A stretch of DNA of 38,113 nt. Source: Bacilli bacterium (GTDB lineage: Bacteria > Bacillota_I > Bacilli_A > RFN20 > CAG-826). Of this stretch, positions 20,008 to 38,009 are shown piece after piece. The translations under genes were made by a program, and so were the position numbers. A model generated the notes under the pieces. It made no database searches. It worked only from the letters and a program-made list of their open reading frames with translations, and was not told the DNA's origin. Within the stretch, counting starts at the first letter, position 1; each line of letters opens with the position of its first letter. The stretch spans positions 1-38,113 of the forward strand of contig JAILIV010000077.1 in assembly GCA_024695105.1 (NCBI GenBank), written 5' to 3'.

Positions 20008-21312
20008 TCATAAGTACTGATCAATTGTACTCAAATATAGGTTTTGGAAACCGGCAGTAAGAGACTGGATTATACTCCCGGTTCTTATGTCGTTTACTAC
20101 CGTGCCACCGACGTGAATTCCGATGAGTTTTCCACTTTTGAACACTGCGGAGCCCGATCCTCCGCCAGTGTAAGGATAATCCGCATATATTAAGCCACTT
20201 TGAGTGTCAACAGACGTTGTTTCGCCCATGCTCCAAAGCATGTCACCGCTAGTATCAAACCTAGGGTATCCAGCCGTCCACAAATCGTCAGAGACAGATA
20301 TTGTCTCCGTGGAGTCGAACCCCAAATAATCGGTGCCGACATCATCGGCGGTGACTAAAAAAGCATAATCGTGGCTCTCTGAATTGCTAGGAACAAAATA
20401 ATCGAGGGGAATTATGTATTTAGAAACCCCGAGAGAACTCTCGTACGAGGATCCGTGTTGATTAACGTAGAGCGTAATTTGGTAAGGCATAGACCATGCC
20501 CCTCTGCTAAAAACGCAGTGGGCAGCAGTCCCAAAAAGATTCGGCTTGATACGAAAGGCACTGCCATAACCGACCCAATGTGCGCTGCTATGACAACCTG
20601 AGGCTTCAACCTCAGAAACGCTATTAAATGGGTGTCCAGTAGAGACGACTGGCTTAACCCCATCGGGGGTAACCGAGCCGAAATCACTATTGGAATAAGA
20701 AATTGTGGAGCTTGGATTCACGGTAACATTAGTTCCTGTAAGGGTATACGACTTTGGCTCTAACTTTTTAGTAGCGGGCGTATAAACGACGTAGTCATAG
20801 GAAGAAGTGAGGTCCGGAATTTCGGAGGCATAGATAGTAAAATTATAGGTTCTCCGAGAGACCAAAGGCTCGACTTGAATATAAGCGGTTCTGACACTCG
20901 ACACAGGGAGAAAGGAGATAACGTTGTTTGCGGAAATAAAACAATGCGTCATATCGCCATCCAAATAATAGACCTTGAGGCTTACCCCATAGCTTGATGT
21001 CGTCAGAATGGAATAAGCGGTATTTGTTTGAGAAGTATATGTTAAGGAATATGAGAAAACTTGGTGGCTATTATCAAATGTGCCAAATTGGGTAGAAGAG
21101 AGATCGCCATCCACGCGCAATTGCACCGGATCACAGTCGTCGTGAGTATTAACGGCCTTGCTAAAACTCTCACGAACAGAAATTAAATTTCTTTGGGCGT
21201 GACAAAAAGCAAAGGCAAAACTTAGTAAGAGGGAGAACATGAAAGTACAAAAAATAACTAAAGAAGACTTTCTAGTTGTTGTTTTTTTAGCAAAAGAATT
21301 CTTAGATCTCAT
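20008..21312 (-). CDS. Secreted trypsin/V8-like serine protease
   Basis: 434 aa from the ATG at 21312 (GGAGG 8 bases upstream). Residues 1-38 form a signal peptide or anchor: basic SKNSFAKKTTTRKSS, then a hydrophobic run to SFAFAFCHAQ. Residues about 45-230 are a Ser/Thr/Tyr-rich, probably beta-structured region without a recognised family. The protease domain follows: His265 in GTAAHC, Asp315 in SHDYAF and Ser386 in GGGSGSAV, the S1B (glutamyl endopeptidase) pattern. The long N-terminal region may be an adhesion or pro-domain. Base composition is lower in G+C than the neighbours. It is inserted with the lipoprotein gene between cshB and ispH, which are near each other in Bacilli. Confidence 0.87.
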   Translation of the reverse strand: MRSKNSFAKKTTTRKSSLVIFCTFMFSLLLSFAFAFCHAQRNLISVRESFSKAVNTHDDCDPVQLRVDGDLSSTQFGTFDNSHQVFSYSLTYTSQTNTAYSILTTSSYGVSLKVYYLDGDMTHCFISANNVISFLPVSSVRTAYIQVEPLVSRRTYNFTIYASEIPDLTSSYDYVVYTPATKKLEPKSYTLTGTNVTVNPSSTISYSNSDFGSVTPDGVKPVVSTGHPFNSVSEVEASGCHSSAHWVGYGSAFRIKPNLFGTAAHCVFSRGAWSMPYQITLYVNQHGSSYESSLGVSKYIIPLDYFVPSNSESHDYAFLVTADDVGTDYLGFDSTETISVSDDLWTAGYPRFDTSGDMLWSMGETTSVDTQSGLIYADYPYTGGGSGSAVFKSGKLIGIHVGGTVVNDIRTGSIIQSLTAGFQNLYLSTIDQYL

Positions 21313-21349
21313 CGTCGTTTCCTCCGAGTTTAAATTGAATAAAACCTTC

Positions 21350-21380
21350 TTTATATTGCAATACAAAACTGTTTTTTCAA
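21350..21380 (-). promoter_or_regulatory. Probable protease promoter
   Basis: Minus strand TTGAAA (21380-21375), then 17 bases, AATATA (or 19 bases to TATAAA at 21355-21350). It leaves a leader of 30-40 bases with the GGAGG site. Two tandem 15-base repeats lie directly upstream of the -35. Confidence 0.45.
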
Positions 21381-32245: not shown

Positions 32246-33632
32246 CTAGCGATTGTGAAACTTGATCGCGGGCCCCAGCGCCTCGGGAATCTTTACGATA
32301 GTATCCCAGTTTGGAGAAGAGGCGCCGGATTCGATATTGGCGATTGCAGGCTGTGACATCTTGCACATTTTCGCAAGTCTCCTCTGAGTCATTCCGACCT
32401 CCTTCCTTCTTTTCTTCATCATGGTTGAAAAAGAGTCGTGCCACAAAGGCGATGTCAAGCCTTCACCGGCCTTGCTTTCTATCTCCTCTTTGGTTGGAAG
32501 GCTGCTTTTGAAATTTTCGGGAACAAGTGAGGAAAGTTCATAGGAGGAAATCCCCAAAGGTTCCTTGGACGAGGCCAAGGCATACCTTGCCACGATTTCC
32601 GATTTGTCTTTGCAAATGAGCAAACCGATGGTTTTGTTGTCGGATTCGCCCCGTAACGTATGGTCCACCGCAACGACATATGTCCCTAGCTGTCCAATGT
32701 CCGCTGGTTTCAATTAATCAATCTTCACCTCCACGACAACATAGGCATGAACGGACGCGTTATAGAAAAGCATGTCACAAAACTCTTCCTCGTCACCGAG
32801 CATGAGTCGGTATTCTCTCCCCACATAGGCAAACCCAGTTCCAAGTTCCAATAGGAAGCGCTCAATGTTGGCGATTAGGGCGTCCTTTAATTCCCTCTCA
32901 TCATATTCTTCGCGTATGGATAGGAAATCGAAGTTATATGGGTCCTTGGTTATTTGGGCGGCAAGGTCCCCTTTGTATTCGGGCAAAACGGATGGAAAGT
33001 TGGTGATTGCCTTTCCTTTCCGCTCAAAAAGATCTGTTCCTAAAAAGTTTAGAAGCATGGCCCTAGACCAGTTATTTTTGATAGTCTCGACAATATAAAA
33101 CAGCGCTTTTTCGGGGTTCCCATCGCATTTGTCTATGATGCATTTTATGTGATTCCAAGGGACCAAAAATATCTGTTCTCCGATAAAGGACGTGTTTCTT
33201 CCCCAATAGGGGAAAAATTGGGCGGAGGGGGGATTCTTTCGTGCCGTTTTCGGCGCGCGGAATCCGATGGAAATTCTTCCCCAACTTGGGGAACAATTTG
33301 AGCGACCCTAATTTGTCCCTCAACTTGGGGGACATTTTCATACGGAAACAAGCAATAGAACCTTTCCTGTACCGCAGGTTTATAGGAGAAAAGCCCTTGG
33401 ACTCAGGCAACAGACTCTTCAGGTCTCGCGAAAGGGTGTCGTAAAAGGCGCTACCCCATCTGGCTTCCGCACGCAGCAAATGGATGCTCCGTCCTAATCT
33501 CCAATTGAAGGCTACCAATTCCATGTTTACTTTGGTCGCGGCCTTAATCTGGGAACGCCTGGAATCAGCCTTAACCGAAACAAGCCATTCCTTATAATCG
33601 TCATCGATAATCGAAATCGTTTTCTGCGCCAT
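32246..33632 (-). pseudogene. Disrupted DUF1016/PDDEXK nuclease (YhcG-type) with C-terminal XRE domain
   Basis: Three open pieces in different states add up to one gene. The N-terminal DUF1016 domain (MAQKTISIIDDDYKEWL to GFSPINLRY) runs from 33632. The frame then shifts near 33363 (an A missing from an A-run) into FYCLFPYENVPQVEG, and shifts again in a five-T run at 33165-33169 into LVPWNHIKCIIDKC. The nuclease part NNWSRAMLLNFLGTDLFERKG to VHAYVVVEVKID follows, then an in-frame TAA (32714-32716), then LKPADIGQLGTYVV, DNKTIGLLIC and the normal DUF1016 end. After LPTKEEIES a short linker leads to an XRE-type helix-turn-helix (KKRRKEVGMTQRRLA, SQPAIANIE). Three independent lesions make a functional product unlikely. 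The family is linked to restriction and phage defence. Confidence 0.85.
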
Positions 33633-33725
33633 ATGCCATTGTCCAACCCCATTCAAAAAGGGGGATTCCTCCATTCCCATATACCGAGATAAAAGGGCAA
33701 TGGCGAACCCTCTTAGATACGACAA

Positions 33726-33906: not shown

Positions 33907-34233
33907 TTAGCGGATTTCAAGATCCTTCGAATACGGAAGGATGCCCCCGATCGGCTTCTTCCCGACGTTCTCTAGGGCGTACTCGAGGTAACGGTATGGG
34001 TCCAGCCCGTTGATGATCGCCGTGCGGATTATCGAGAACAGGGCGACCGTGTGCCTGGCGCCGGCCTCGCTGCCCGAGGTCTGGAAAACCTTCCTGGCGA
34101 CGACGAAGGGCTTGACGCACCTCTCGGCCAGGTTGTTCGAGAGCTTGAGGTAGGGCTCGGAAAGGTACGGAAGCAGGTCGTCAGGATGGATGGTTTTGTG
34201 CAAGGCTGGATGGTTGGGTTTGTGCAGCGACAA
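33907..34233 (-). pseudogene. IS66-family transposase, C-terminal remnant
   Basis: 108 aa remain of a protein that is normally 450-550 aa. The segment LKLSNNLAERCVKPFVVARK carries the catalytic Glu (NNLAER) of the IS66 DDE transposase. It is followed by the family end GSEAGARHTVALFSIIRTAIINGLDPYRYLEYAL. The first 16 residues come from an imperfect tandem repeat (HKPNHPAL/HKTIHPDD) and do not look like IS66, so the 5' breakpoint is near 34190. The DDE Asp residues and the zinc-finger and helix-turn-helix parts are absent. The remnant cannot transpose. Confidence 0.87.
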
Positions 34234-34339: not shown

Positions 34340-34654
34340 TTAATTATCGTTACCAGGAGTCATGGTATAACAATAGTTCCTACCAGCCTCTATATGTTCT
34401 TTGTCATATGGTTGAAGGAGCGGGCATAAATCATCGCGATCAAAGAATATGCCGCCCTCTTCATAAGTGGGGCGTTGCCCATATCCATCGAAAGTCTTTA
34501 CCGACGCCCAATAAACTCTTTCCCAGTCTTCGGAAGGACAATAGAAATAGATTTGATAATGGGTCCCTGCATTACCAACTTGAGCATCTGCATGAACATT
34601 GCTAATTGGGCAATCTTCATAGCCTTCTGCGATTCTCACTTGTTCTTTGTCCAT
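34340..34654 (-). CDS. Small protein of unknown function
   Basis: 104 aa from the ATG at 34654, which has AAGGAG 6 bases upstream, a good ribosome binding site that supports a real gene. The protein is acidic and rich in aromatic residues (YQIYFYCPSEDWERVYW, YEEGGIFFDRDD, NYCYTM), has three cysteines and no signal peptide or membrane segment. I do not recognise the family. It lies between the IS66 remnant and the terminator of the permease gene, in A+T-richer accessory DNA. Confidence 0.65.
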   Translation of the reverse strand: MDKEQVRIAEGYEDCPISNVHADAQVGNAGTHYQIYFYCPSEDWERVYWASVKTFDGYGQRPTYEEGGIFFDRDDLCPLLQPYDKEHIEAGRNYCYTMTPGNDN

Positions 34655-34711
34655 ATTTATCTCCTTAATCGATTTCATTATTTCGCAACGAGGAGGTCGG
34701 CGGTTCGAGAC

Positions 34712-34747
34712 AAGGAAAAGCCGCCCCAAAAAGATTAACGAGACGGC
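34712..34747 (-). terminator. Probable terminator of the HD-GYP/permease operon
   Basis: Minus strand GCCGTC (34747-34742) pairs with GGCGGC (34725-34720), with one G-U pair and a 16-base loop, followed by TTTTCCTT. Confidence 0.55.
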
Positions 34748-34763
34748 AAGATGTATTATTAAG

Positions 34764-37007
34764 CTAAGCGTCTATTTTCTTTAATCCAATATAATAGTTT
34801 TCTATTCTATCTCTTGCTCTAGCAAAATATTTTTCTAGTCCTGGGTCAAATTGTTTGCCCATGTTTTCAATGATTATTTTATAGGCGTCATCAAATGAGA
34901 ATTCGTCTTTATAAATACGCTTACTAACGAGTGCGTCGTAAACATCCGCGACCGCCATAATACGTGCTTCTAAAGGTATTTCTTCACCTTTTAGTCCTTG
35001 TGGGTAGCCCTTGCCATCCCATCTTTCATGATGGAAATTAGCGACATTAATTGCTACCGCTTCAAAGTTCTTATCAGTCACATCTTTAAGGATTTGCGCT
35101 AAAATGACTGCTCCTGCCGCGGAGTGAGTCTTCATCACTTGGTATTCTTCGGGTGTAAACTTTCCTGGTTTTCTTAAAATGACATCATCAATAGTAATCT
35201 TGCCTAAGTCATGCATAGGAGCAGCTTTAATAAGACTTTGATAGAAAGTTGAATTCAAATCAACGGATGGATCTTTAATCATTTCTTCAACCAAGAAACG
35301 CACTACATCGCTCGTTCTTTTAATATGACCACCTGTAGAATTATCTCTTCCTTCAACCATAGTGGCCATACCTAACACTAATTTATCTTGCAAAGCAACT
35401 TCTCTTTTTTTAATCACAGAGAAGACAAAGAAGAAAACAGCTTGCGTAGCAATTAATAAAAGCATACTAGCGATAAGTCCCGCGATTATTTCATTGTCAT
35501 TGTGGTCTACTGCATGGATTAATTTCAAAATCCAAGAACTAATGCAGTAAATGATTAAAACAAATAGACCAAAAAGCGCTACCATAGAATGACCAAAGGT
35601 TCTTGTTTTGTCTCTTTTTAATAACACTGCGTAATAGATAAAACCTGCTACTGCCCACACAACAAAGATTAAGATTGATTCCTTGGCTAAATAATCGAGG
35701 TTAATGAAATCATTAACAATAGCCGAAATTGCAAAAGTAATACATAAGAGCAAACCAGTTACACCCATTGTCATGGCTTCTCTACCTTTATTAATATCTC
35801 TTCTTGATTGTTTGATGGTGATGATTGAGATATAGGTGTAAACGATAATGCCGCAGAATGTATTAATATCAACAATCCATCCAATCAACACTCTACCGAA
35901 AAAGAGCATTATTGCGGTAAAGATTGTGAGTGCGATGATAATATTTCTTGGATTTCCATATTTATCTACCTTAGTAAAAAACTTAGGGAAAACACCATCT
36001 TCTGACATTGAATGCAATAAGTTAGATAAGGCAATCATACTGCCAATTAAACTGGTCACTAAAATCGCTAAAAGAGCGATGATAAACATTACTAGTCCTG
36101 GCACGCCCAAATAACGGTGCATAACATAAAATGCTGGTATCGCATCTAATCCAGTTAAAGAATTAGAACTAGTTAGATATTCATACCAGTTATTGTAGTT
36201 ATCCGGGAAAACACTGATTGATAACTGACAAATAAGAATATAAACAATCGTGGTTATAACAATAGAAGCAACTAAGATTTTAAAAACATTTTTATGACGG
36301 AATTTGAAATCCTTAGAAGAATGGGAAATGCTTTCAAAACCAACGAATGCCCAAGGCATCATGCCCACCACTCCCACAACTTGCTTAAACTCACTATTTC
36401 CATCAGGAGCAAAGTCTGGTTTATAAGACGATATTCCGCCTTGATGCATAACAGCGGCAACAACAAATCCTGCAATGATTAAAGCAACAAACAACAACAT
36501 CAAACCACCCTGAATTGATGTGGTGATTCTTCTTTTAATCAAACATATACCAGCAAATAGTAATAAGAAGAATAAAGAAAGCAACAATTCTCCTAGCCAT
36601 ACATCATAGCCACCAATGGAATAATGGAATCCAAATTGGAAAGTACTTCCAAAAATATATCTCGCAAATAATGAGAATGAAGACACATTAGCCCATAAAA
36701 TAGCAGCGTATGTAATGATTAGAAACCATGCAACTAAAAACGCATGGTCACCACCTAAGGTATTCTTGGCAAATGTATAAATACCACCATTGGAGTTTGG
36801 GTATTTATTTATCATATAATGATAGTTGTACGCTAAAACAAGCATGATAAGCATGCCAATGACAATACCAATCATGCTTCCTAAAGGACCGGCTTTACTT
36901 AAAAAGGAACTACCGGTAACAACAAAAGAGCCCCATCCGATTGCGGTGCCTATCGAAAGACCTAACGCTCCTAAAGCTGATACTTTTTTGCTTTTTAATT
37001 TATCCAT
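34764..37007 (-). CDS. APC-family amino-acid permease fused to an HD-GYP phosphodiesterase domain
   Basis: 747 aa. Residues about 8-465 are an APC-superfamily permease: SALGALGLSIGTAIGWGSFVV (first helix with the Gly-rich substrate loop), PNSNGGIYTFAKNTLG, and PWAFVGFESISHSSKDF in helix 6. Two more helices follow (about 474-495 and 506-533). Residues about 540-735 are a complete HD-GYP domain: Glu552, His561, His599-Asp600 (HDLGK), His628, His659-His660, GYP at 667-669, Asp688, all the metal ligands of active c-di-GMP phosphodiesterases. The reading is that amino-acid binding or transport controls a cytosolic hydrolase. It begins 15 bases after the stop of the HD-GYP gene upstream, without a visible ribosome binding site. 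A/T-ending codons and low G+C set it apart from the housekeeping genes and suggest transfer. Confidence 0.88.
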   Translation of the reverse strand: MDKLKSKKVSALGALGLSIGTAIGWGSFVVTGSSFLSKAGPLGSMIGIVIGMLIMLVLAYNYHYMINKYPNSNGGIYTFAKNTLGGDHAFLVAWFLIITYAAILWANVSSFSLFARYIFGSTFQFGFHYSIGGYDVWLGELLLSLFFLLLFAGICLIKRRITTSIQGGLMLLFVALIIAGFVVAAVMHQGGISSYKPDFAPDGNSEFKQVVGVVGMMPWAFVGFESISHSSKDFKFRHKNVFKILVASIVITTIVYILICQLSISVFPDNYNNWYEYLTSSNSLTGLDAIPAFYVMHRYLGVPGLVMFIIALLAILVTSLIGSMIALSNLLHSMSEDGVFPKFFTKVDKYGNPRNIIIALTIFTAIMLFFGRVLIGWIVDINTFCGIIVYTYISIITIKQSRRDINKGREAMTMGVTGLLLCITFAISAIVNDFINLDYLAKESILIFVVWAVAGFIYYAVLLKRDKTRTFGHSMVALFGLFVLIIYCISSWILKLIHAVDHNDNEIIAGLIASMLLLIATQAVFFFVFSVIKKREVALQDKLVLGMATMVEGRDNSTGGHIKRTSDVVRFLVEEMIKDPSVDLNSTFYQSLIKAAPMHDLGKITIDDVILRKPGKFTPEEYQVMKTHSAAGAVILAQILKDVTDKNFEAVAINVANFHHERWDGKGYPQGLKGEEIPLEARIMAVADVYDALVSKRIYKDEFSFDDAYKIIIENMGKQFDPGLEKYFARARDRIENYYIGLKKIDA

Positions 37008-37022
37008 ATTAATTATTACTAA

Positions 37023-37913
37023 TTAGAGTTTTTTATTTTTTGGATCACAAGCAATGATCTCTTCTTTTGGGATGGAAACAAAAATATCCACTAACTCTGG
37101 TTCAAATTTACTGCCGGATTCACTTTTGATGATTTCAATCGCTTCTTCATATGTGCGAGGTGTGCTATAGACTCTTCCCATCGTAATTGCAGAATAAGAA
37201 TCAATAATCGCGATTAATTTACTTGGAAAAGGAATGGAATCACCTTTTTTAAAGTAATACCCTTGTCCATCTATTCTTTCGTGGTGATATAAAATCCAGT
37301 CGGCAATATAGTCAAATGATTTAATTGATCTAAGGAGTCTAACAGCTACTTGTGGGTGAGTGCGCATTAAAGCTTCCTCCTCTTCGTTGAGTTGACCTTC
37401 CTTATTAAGAATTTCTTCAGGCATGCCTAATTTACCAATGTCATGTAATAAAGCAGCGTATTCCAAACTAACAAGGTTATAATCTGATTTTAAATAACGT
37501 GGTAAGTGTTTATAAAACACTGTCATTAAATTTTTCACATGCATACTGTGACCTTGGAGATTTGGCCCATGAGCATCAATAACGCTAATTAAGATTTGCG
37601 CTACTTCTAATGATCTTTCTTTAGAGGTTGCAATGAGATGCCTTAATAAAATAATCATGATACTGACAAACAAACTACCAAAGAACAAGATAAAACCAGT
37701 AACTATGTTTGGATTGGCAAATATACTTACGTAGATATATCCAAACAAGAAAAACACAATTAAGATAAGGCCGGTAATAATCATGGCGTTGTCTTTTTTC
37801 ACACCACCAGAGATAACATCTCTCATTTTAAAAGTGAAGATAGTGTAAAAAACTATGTTGGATACCATGTTTGCTGCACCAACAAGAATAAGAACTAGTG
37901 TTAGTGTTTCCAT
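37023..37913 (-). CDS. Membrane HD-GYP-like phosphohydrolase
   Basis: 296 aa. Three membrane segments (about 3-27, 43-63, 70-92) then an HD-GYP-type domain: Asp113 (Glu in the permease fusion), His122, His157-Asp158 (HDIGK), His186, His210-His211, Asp238. The GYP signature is GYY (218-220) and the segment after it is shorter than usual. The metal ligands are nearly all kept, so it may be active, but the altered signature leaves the substrate open. First gene of a two-gene unit with the permease fusion. The start ATG has only AAGG 12 bases upstream, which falls in the loop of an inverted repeat. Confidence 0.85.
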   Translation of the reverse strand: METLTLVLILVGAANMVSNIVFYTIFTFKMRDVISGGVKKDNAMIITGLILIVFFLFGYIYVSIFANPNIVTGFILFFGSLFVSIMIILLRHLIATSKERSLEVAQILISVIDAHGPNLQGHSMHVKNLMTVFYKHLPRYLKSDYNLVSLEYAALLHDIGKLGMPEEILNKEGQLNEEEEALMRTHPQVAVRLLRSIKSFDYIADWILYHHERIDGQGYYFKKGDSIPFPSKLIAIIDSYSAITMGRVYSTPRTYEEAIEIIKSESGSKFEPELVDIFVSIPKEEIIACDPKNKKL

Positions 37914-37931
37914 ATAATAAAACCTTATTAT
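37914..37931 (-). promoter_or_regulatory. Inverted repeat covering the start region of the HD-GYP gene
   Basis: ATAATAA, loop GGTT, TTATTAT on the minus strand, ending at the ATG. The only purine-rich bases that could act as a ribosome binding site are in the loop. It could be an operator or a translational hairpin; all arms are A/T, so chance is possible. Confidence 0.4.
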
Positions 37932-38009
37932 CTAACATAATAAAGGCATTTCTATCAGAATAAATAATATTTACGAAGTATTTACAAAATGACTGATGCG
38001 AAAAGCTAG

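What the first reader, a model, noticed from the sequence alone, without database searches (positions are those of the whole stretch)
34764..37007. Amino-acid permease fused in one chain to a complete HD-GYP domain
Seen: about 460 residues of APC permease, two extra helices, then an HD-GYP domain with every metal ligand (Glu552, His561, His599, Asp600, His628, His659, His660, Asp688) and an intact GYP at 667-669. Known: HD-GYP domains hydrolyse c-di-GMP or related cyclic dinucleotides and are usually joined to response-regulator, PAS, GAF or periplasmic sensor domains. Inferred: the permease works as a transporter-receptor, so that amino-acid occupancy sets the hydrolase activity. This links uptake to a second messenger in a single protein.
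Basis: partly seen in the sequence, partly recalled or inferred. Interest (0 to 1): 0.82.

Follow-up and report, generated by a model that had tools for sequence, protein, structure and literature searches.

The report
Amino-acid permease fused to signalling hydrolase
A gut bacterium carries a protein in which an amino-acid uptake machine is joined to an enzyme of the kind that destroys a bacterial signal molecule, and close relatives of the same uptake module are joined to other signalling enzymes, which suggests a little-noticed family of nutrient sensors.

Summary
The gene lies on the minus strand (34764-37007, 747 aa): APC permease, two added helices, HD-GYP domain. It is no assembly error: ten assemblies cross the same joint. 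The HD-GYP keeps 7 of the 8 metal ligands of PmGH; the eighth (Glu185) is Ser557, and Glu552 is not that ligand.

The larger finding lies outside the coordinates. The 80 best-matching permease relatives kept from one genome scan (of 546) are all fused to signalling outputs by Pfam: 37 histidine kinases, 25 GGDEF, 9 GGDEF-EAL, 9 HD-GYP. On the permease tree outputs change at least 10 times, and a single HD-GYP clade is rejected (p = 0.017). Unfused relatives exist, more distant. The window gene sits in a conserved two-gene operon with a second membrane HD-GYP-like protein; here that operon is a low-GC, probably recently acquired island.

Most likely the permease is an amino-acid or polyamine receptor that sets cyclic-dinucleotide hydrolysis through TM13-14 and a helical stalk. 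Ligand, direction of control and chemistry are untested. Transporter-receptors are a known kind (CbrA, Ks-Amt5); nine answered searches of one open-access library found no APC-based family.

The parts
34764..37007 (-). APC permease - TM13/14 - stalk - HD-GYP protein, 747 aa (P0001), stop codon included
   Evidence: joint crossed in 10 assemblies
35613..36986 (-). APC permease core, residues 8-465; TM1 motif GTAIGWGSF and TM6 motif PWAFVGFE
   Evidence: Pfam AA_permease_2; AF2 model, Foldseek best match AdiC 3ob6; motif conservation over 36 rows
35343..35612 (-). joint, residues 466-555: two added helices, the second (504-555) running on as a stalk into the HD-GYP domain; short outer loop
   Evidence: AF2 helices; alignment; least conserved part, 59.4%
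34767..35342 (-). HD-GYP domain, residues 556-747 (H561, HD 599-600, K603, H628, HH 659-660, GYP 667-669, D688; Ser557 in place of the Glu185 ligand of PmGH)
   Evidence: Pfam HD_5; alignment to 4mcw and 4r8z; ligand columns
37023..37913 (-). operon partner P0002, 296 aa: N-terminal helices (about three, likely membrane) and an HD-GYP-like domain with GYY for GYP; 15 bases upstream of P0001
   Evidence: Pfam HD_5; next to the fusion in all 6 loci with upstream sequence (L036-L041), gaps -4 to +25
33910..34233 (-). remnant of the C-terminal end of an IS66 transposase, beside the low-GC block that holds the operon
   Evidence: Pfam DDE_Tnp_IS66 E 7.1e-8; GC profile

Best explanation
P0001 is a transporter-derived membrane receptor (transceptor). 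SHOWN: an APC permease fold and an HD-GYP domain in one chain, conserved together; the same permease module carries histidine kinase, GGDEF or GGDEF-EAL outputs in other bacteria; the genome has GGDEF and EAL proteins and a c-di-GMP-I riboswitch. INFERRED: an outside amino acid, or a polyamine, binds at the TM1/TM6 breaks; the change between outward and inward or occluded states is passed through TM13-14 and the continuous helix 504-555 to the HD-GYP domain, probably in a dimer, and raises or lowers hydrolysis of c-di-GMP (or a related cyclic dinucleotide), with pGpG a likely product if the site holds two metals. P0002 is probably a membrane partner or second subunit of the same switch. Whether substrate is also transported, and whether binding activates or inhibits, is open.
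For: 80 of 80 kept permease relatives carry a known signalling output by Pfam: HisKA 37, GGDEF 34 (9 of them with EAL), HD_5 9. On the permease tree (86 rows) the outputs need at least 10 changes and HD-GYP 3; one HD-GYP clade is rejected, p-AU 0.017. Swapping of outputs on one input module is the mark of a sensor domain. HD-GYP of the window clade groups with HD-GYP domains of the same genus that carry other N-termini (starred 95/92), so the fusion arose locally. TM1 GWG (G24-W25-G26) and TM6 P-W-A-F-x-G-F-E are nearly invariant across output types in 36 rows, and TM1/TM6 breaks set the pocket in this fold (PMC5809530, passages). Permease and HD-GYP are equally conserved. In the window clade the segment between TM13 and TM14 is short (5 residues in the model), while L052 and L080 have a long one, which leaves the permease as the only evident input. 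The host has 10 GGDEF matches in 9 frames, 4 EAL matches and one c-di-GMP-I riboswitch at 50 bits. P0001 is the only AA_permease_2 match in the 85% complete assembly. Precedents: CbrA (PMC13022988, PMC7096432) and Ks-Amt5 (PMC5764959).
Against: No ligand, transport or enzyme assay exists for this family as far as found. In CbrA the kinase works without the SLC5 domain and the signal is thought to be intracellular (PMC7096432, PMC7918813, passages), so fusion does not prove coupling. PilZ was not found in the host, so effectors are only partly known. Ser557 replaces a metal ligand whose loss lowers activity in PmGH. PA4781, the best-scoring HD-GYP of known structure, has limited activity and prefers pGpG (PMC8177086, passages). 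In a sample of 392 genomes of the phylum, 7 of 8 genomes with a match have unfused frames of 435-501 aa, so the wider permease group is not bound to signalling. The scan that gave 80 of 80 used an alignment of fused proteins that ran into TM13, which favours fused relatives.
Confidence: 0.6

Rival explanations
1. Inside-out control: the protein is first of all a transporter, and the HD-GYP domain, by binding or cutting a nucleotide, regulates uptake.
For: The permease core keeps the conserved TM1 and TM6 motifs, and P0001 is the only AA_permease_2 match in its incomplete genome, so it could be a needed uptake route.
Against: Interchangeable outputs, including histidine kinases, GGDEF and GGDEF-EAL, fit an input module better than a regulated transporter. 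In CbrA the kinase domain has no significant effect on transport (PMC7096432 abstract passage).
Confidence: 0.15
2. The permease is a dead membrane anchor or dimerisation unit; the hydrolase answers to P0002 or to cytosolic signals, or is always on.
For: Isolated CbrA kinase works without its transporter domain (PMC7096432, passages). P0002 is kept beside the fusion in all 6 loci that hold upstream sequence. Phe173 aligns with a TM5 lysine of GkApcT that I recall as its proton site.
Against: The permease is as conserved as the enzyme within the clade (75.0 and 75.5%), and its putative pocket motifs are the most conserved of the segments compared (TM6 0.87, TM1 0.80, all 0.60). The unfused relatives L029 and L031 also lack the TM5 lysine, so its absence is not a sign of a dead transporter.
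Confidence: 0.15
3. The HD-GYP domain has another substrate, such as pGpG or a cGAMP-like molecule, or is weakly active; the receptor logic holds but the messenger is not c-di-GMP.
For: S-T-G in place of E/D-T-G; closest solved HD-GYP is PA4781 (118 bits), which prefers pGpG (PMC8177086, passages).
Against: All 11 other compared catalytic and metal positions match PmGH, and the host has GGDEF, EAL and a c-di-GMP-I riboswitch. HD-GYP proteins with a non-carboxylate at this place occur widely (PMC4159591, passages).
Confidence: 0.25
4. The window copy is an assembly chimera or contamination: a low-GC piece joined to a high-GC contig.
For: The two genes have 34-36% GC and GC3 30-31% in a contig of 54% GC with most genes at GC3 62-80%; only about 100 bases of high-GC DNA lie beyond the block before the contig ends.
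Against: High-GC sequence lies on both sides; an IS66 remnant lies beside the block. It would in any case not touch the fusion, which is seen in nine other assemblies.
Confidence: 0.1

Closest known systems
CbrA / CrbS: SLC5-STAC histidine kinases (Pseudomonas, Vibrio)
   Same: A LeuT-fold transporter domain at the N-terminus and a cytosolic signalling output in one chain; a small membrane partner encoded just upstream (CbrX; PMC13022988 abstract, outline and passages).
   Different: Transporter is SLC5, here APC (2.A.3-like). Output is a histidine kinase, here HD-GYP. CbrA has a STAC domain after the transporter; here the Pfam scan shows nothing between permease and HD, and the model shows two helices and a stalk. 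CbrX is a small peptide; P0002 is a 296-aa HD-GYP-like protein.
Ks-Amt5, ammonium sensor histidine kinase
   Same: A transporter repurposed as a sensor fused to a signalling domain (PMC5764959, passages).
   Different: Amt fold, trimer, histidine kinase; loss of transport was shown there, while nothing has been measured here.
AdiC / GkApcT / CAT permeases (APC family)
   Same: Fold: AdiC 3ob6 is the first Foldseek match (TM-score 0.85 by target length); sequence: GkApcT 6f34 and plant CAT4.
   Different: Only about 14-20% identity; TM1 GWG motif; two added helices and an enzyme at the C-terminus.
HD-GYP phosphodiesterases PmGH, PA4781
   Same: Seven of eight metal ligands, GYP, catalytic Asp/Lys, substrate Arg/Lys.
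   Different: Ser557 for the metal-bridging Glu185; membrane permease as N-terminus, where PmGH has a GAF-like sensor (label recalled) and PA4781 a receiver (label recalled).
5TMR (S-component-like) receptors
   Same: A transporter-related membrane module joined to GGDEF, EAL, PAS and HK domains in a modular way (PMC11109136, passages).
   Different: Unrelated fold (S-component); that paper names an NRAMP fusion as the only assembly with an integral membrane transporter as a fused domain of 5TMR proteins.

Membership tests
APC amino-acid permease family | Match over the curated cut-off of AA_permease_2 | tested here: met
   133.4 bits against 27
APC amino-acid permease family | LeuT/APC fold with breaks in TM1 and TM6 | tested here: met
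   AF2 pLDDT 84.9; AdiC first in Foldseek; breaks between helices 11-22/26-68 and around 215-224
APC amino-acid permease family | Transports amino acids or polyamines | not testable with these tools
   No assay; substrate not predicted with confidence
HD-GYP phosphodiesterase | HD_5 match, HD dyad and GYP motif | tested here: met
   HD_5 97.8 bits against 27.2; H599-D600, G667-Y668-P669
HD-GYP phosphodiesterase | Seven shared metal ligands of the family | tested here: met
   H561, H599, D600, H628, H659, H660, D688
HD-GYP phosphodiesterase, trinuclear (E/D-T-G) subgroup | Carboxylate at the Glu185 position | tested here: not met
   Ser557 in all 8 window-clade rows and L080; Asp in L052
HD-GYP phosphodiesterase | Hydrolyses a cyclic dinucleotide | not testable with these tools
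   No assay
SLC5-STAC histidine kinases (CbrA-like) | SLC5 transporter domain, STAC domain and kinase | tested here: not met
   Pfam finds APC and HD only; it works like, but is not a member of, this family
Transceptors (functional class) | Substrate occupancy changes output activity | not testable with these tools
   Needs biochemistry

The most novel reading that the evidence does not exclude
The APC permease with TM13-14 is a general, interchangeable nutrient-input module: a family of receptors in rumen and gut anaerobes (Bacillota, Spirochaetota, Actinomycetota and one Chloroflexota-labelled MAG in the scan) that couples amino-acid or polyamine sensing directly to c-di-GMP synthesis, c-di-GMP breakdown or phosphorelay, according to the output fused, and that has acquired HD-GYP at least twice independently. 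The window operon adds a two-gene, horizontally moving version with a partner HD-GYP-like subunit.
Probability: 0.5. Interest if true: 0.8.

Novelty: new variant of a known kind. Interest (0 to 1): 0.66.

Why it matters
If true, amino-acid sensing feeds into c-di-GMP and two-component signalling through transporter-like receptors that may be common in rumen and gut bacteria, where inputs to these networks are mostly unknown. A 2026 preprint still calls CbrA a rare transceptor (PMC13022988, abstract). A family in which one transporter fold is joined to four kinds of output would let the coupling of transport state to signalling be compared across outputs, and would make the question of what HD-GYP and GGDEF proteins sense directly testable in this group.

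Tried and rejected
Assembly or sequencing error of the fusion: rejected (ten assemblies). Phage or plasmid origin: A1 in viral contigs gave 78 pattern stretches, none a relative; in plasmids 564 records match by one part, none over 80% of the query. Trinuclear metal site: rejected on sequence (Ser557). P0002 as an obligate partner of the fusion: not upheld. G006 carries a P0002 homologue (54%) beside a frame that looks like a membrane protein with a SpoIIE/PP2C-type phosphatase domain (my reading of the translation, not a family search); L052 and L080 have no such neighbour. A PilZ effector: none found.

Rows dropped: the first tree (89 rows) held three unfused rows that were wrong or very long (L121, and L123 and L124, where my script had picked another gene); they were removed and the tree rebuilt (86 rows). 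Loci L119, L120 and L122 were not used. From the HD-GYP set of 39, three P0002-type rows were left out. In the identity comparison 2 of the 7 rows of A1 (partial) were left out. Motif conservation used 36 rows (window and 35 of the relatives), not all 80; 26 of these 36 were cut before TM14, so the long outer segment was seen to its end only in L052 and L080.

Structure of P0002: pLDDT 69.4, too weak to use beyond helix positions. The structure search with VIA-align was not available.

Full report
WHAT IS THERE. The open frame at 34764-37007 is on the minus strand and encodes 747 residues. Pfam finds AA_permease_2 at 12-428 and HD_5 at 564-723. The plus strand there has no long frame. AF2, with an alignment of 36 rows, gives pLDDT 84.9 and pTM 0.72: an APC fold, then helices 476-498 and 504-555, then the HD-GYP domain. 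The helix 504-555 runs from the membrane into the enzyme without a break, so the joint is a stalk rather than a domain; that it transmits a signal is inferred. Foldseek puts AdiC first (3ob6, TM-score 0.85 by target length) and matches the enzyme part to PA4781 and PmGH.

ACTIVE SITE. Aligned to PmGH without gaps around the site, and with the ligands named in PMC4159591 (passages seen), Glu185 corresponds to Ser557, not to Glu552. The other seven ligands and the equivalents of D183, K225, D308, R314 and K317 are present. The paper predicts two metals for members without the carboxylate, though it adds that the boundary is not clear-cut; a review says dinuclear members make a one-step cut (PMC8177086, passages). 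So pGpG is the likelier product if c-di-GMP is the substrate. Ser557 is shared by all 8 window-clade rows and L080; L052 has Asp.

REALITY OF THE FUSION. Ten assemblies cross the joint (window, G018, G024, G013, G099, L037, L039 whole; G027, G030, L036 cut by contig ends). A nucleotide comparison showed which loci are the same record in two collections (L007=L038, L008=L040, L010=L041, L011=L042). In the 116 genomes nearest to the window's, the fusion is in 7 (G000, G018, G024, G013, G099, G027, G030), and a permease-histidine-kinase fusion in 2 (G003, G011).

THE PERMEASE IS A SENSOR MODULE. Pfam on the C-terminal parts of all 80 finds HisKA in 37, GGDEF in 34, EAL in 9, HD_5 in 9, Response_reg in 43. 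With the motif-based sorting that is 37 kinases, 25 GGDEF, 9 GGDEF-EAL and 9 HD-GYP: 80 of 80 fused. The named hosts are mostly rumen and gut MAGs: Lachnospiraceae, Oscillospiraceae, Selenomonadaceae, Erysipelotrichaceae, other Bacilli, Treponema, Coriobacteriaceae, Eggerthellaceae, and one MAG labelled Chloroflexi. Against this: the query was made from fused proteins and ran into TM13, which favours fused relatives, and in a sample of 392 genomes of the phylum 7 of the 8 genomes with a match carry unfused frames of 435-501 aa at lower scores (228-308 bits against 920).

EVOLUTION. On a careful tree of 86 permease rows (80 loci, window, L009, L014 and 3 unfused rows) the five labels need 10 changes, and HD-GYP needs 3 in every bootstrap range shown. 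Holding the 11 HD-GYP rows together is rejected, p-AU 0.017, with the warning that the group should have been named before the tree was seen. In the tree of 36 HD-GYP domains (39 found; 3 P0002-type rows left out) the ten window-clade domains form one clade (100/100) inside a set of HD-GYP domains from the same genus and family with other N-termini (95/92). One such relative in the same genome, L002, matches HisKA_7TM at 26.4 bits, just below the cut-off of 28.6. So the window clade probably took its HD-GYP from a local protein, separately from L052; for L080, whose HD-GYP falls in the same wider set, a shared HD-GYP source is not excluded.

CONSTRAINT. Within 5 full-length fusions, permease and HD-GYP are equally conserved (75.0% and 75.5%), the joint less (59.4%). 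Over 36 rows with all output types, the TM1 and TM6 break segments are among the most conserved parts (0.80 and 0.87 against 0.60 overall); W25, P218, W219, A220, G223, F224 and E225 are among the columns at 97% or more. These breaks set the pocket in LeuT-fold transporters (PMC5809530, passages). In the window clade the stretch between TM13 and TM14 is short; in L052 and L080 it is a long, probably external, segment, and 26 further rows, cut before TM14, show the beginning of a long segment too. So some relatives may have a second sensor there; the window clade does not.

THE OPERON. P0002 (37023-37913, minus) has about three N-terminal helices, likely in the membrane, and an HD-GYP-like domain (HD_5 108.6 bits) with GYY instead of GYP. 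Its HD dyad and histidine ligands are invariant in 7 rows, but the Lys of HDxGK is kept in only 4 of 7. It lies upstream of the fusion in all 6 loci with upstream sequence (L036-L041), with gaps of -4 to +25 bases, while the genes further out differ among these loci. In 116 related genomes, P0002 at E 1e-30 or better is in 9: seven with the fusion, G006 beside a different membrane gene, and G002 at a contig end next to a transposase-like frame. A partner role is likely but unproved.

MOBILITY. In the window the pair has 34-36% GC and GC3 30-31% in a contig where most genes have GC3 62-80%. In L036, L037, L039 and L041 the same gene is low-GC in low-GC surroundings; in L038, L040 and L042 it is 47-52% GC in surroundings of 44-51%. 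The window copy is therefore probably a recent arrival, and an IS66 remnant lies next to it. The rest of the contig is ordinary chromosome (glycyl-tRNA synthetase, Era, RecO, cytidine deaminase, DnaG).

MESSENGER CONTEXT. The window's genome (85% complete) has 10 GGDEF matches in 9 frames, 4 EAL matches, further HD-GYP proteins, and one c-di-GMP-I riboswitch over its gathering score; no PilZ was found. The riboswitch lies ahead of a frame with a signal-peptide-like start (my reading), near a GGDEF gene. P0001 is the only AA_permease_2 match. c-di-GMP is thus the best-supported messenger, by context only.

WHAT IS KNOWN. Nine answered full-text searches of one open-access library gave no description of an APC permease fused to HD-GYP, GGDEF or a histidine kinase; subscription papers and supplements were not searched. 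The closest known things are CbrA and Ks-Amt5 (passages and abstract seen). CbrA also warns against easy conclusions, since its kinase can act without the transporter domain. I judge this a new variant of a known kind, transporter-derived receptors, with a wider and less described family behind it than the finding suggested.

Noticed in passing
window 34600-38000: Low-GC block (about 35% GC, GC3 about 31%) inside a contig of 54% GC; looks like a recently acquired island that holds just the two-gene operon and a small unknown frame.
   Followed up: partly
window 33075-33725 and 33910-34233, minus strand: A DUF1016_N frame and an IS66 transposase remnant beside the island.
   Followed up: no
window 20008-21366, minus strand: A 452-aa frame of lower GC (43%, GC3 43.5%) than its neighbours, with no NCBIfam match.
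   Followed up: no
L125 3895-6387 (G006:C25): A P0002 homologue (54%) directly followed by a frame that looks like a membrane protein with a SpoIIE/PP2C-type phosphatase domain, i.e. another sensor-output gene in the place of the permease fusion.
   Followed up: partly
L013/L048 and L014: Same-genus relatives with the permease joined to a histidine kinase and receiver, 39-41% identical over the permease.
   Followed up: yes
L069, L078, L072, L056: Permease fusions with elaborate outputs: PAS-GGDEF, GGDEF-REC-GGDEF-EAL-like, HK with two receivers.
   Followed up: no
L132 (G000:C57:1920-1997, minus): A c-di-GMP-I riboswitch (50 bits) ahead of a frame with a signal-peptide-like start, close to a GGDEF gene.
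   Followed up: partly
L052 and L080 (relatives): Two further permease-HD-GYP fusions outside the window clade, in a Coriobacteriaceae and a Clostridiales MAG, without the P0002 neighbour.
   Followed up: yes
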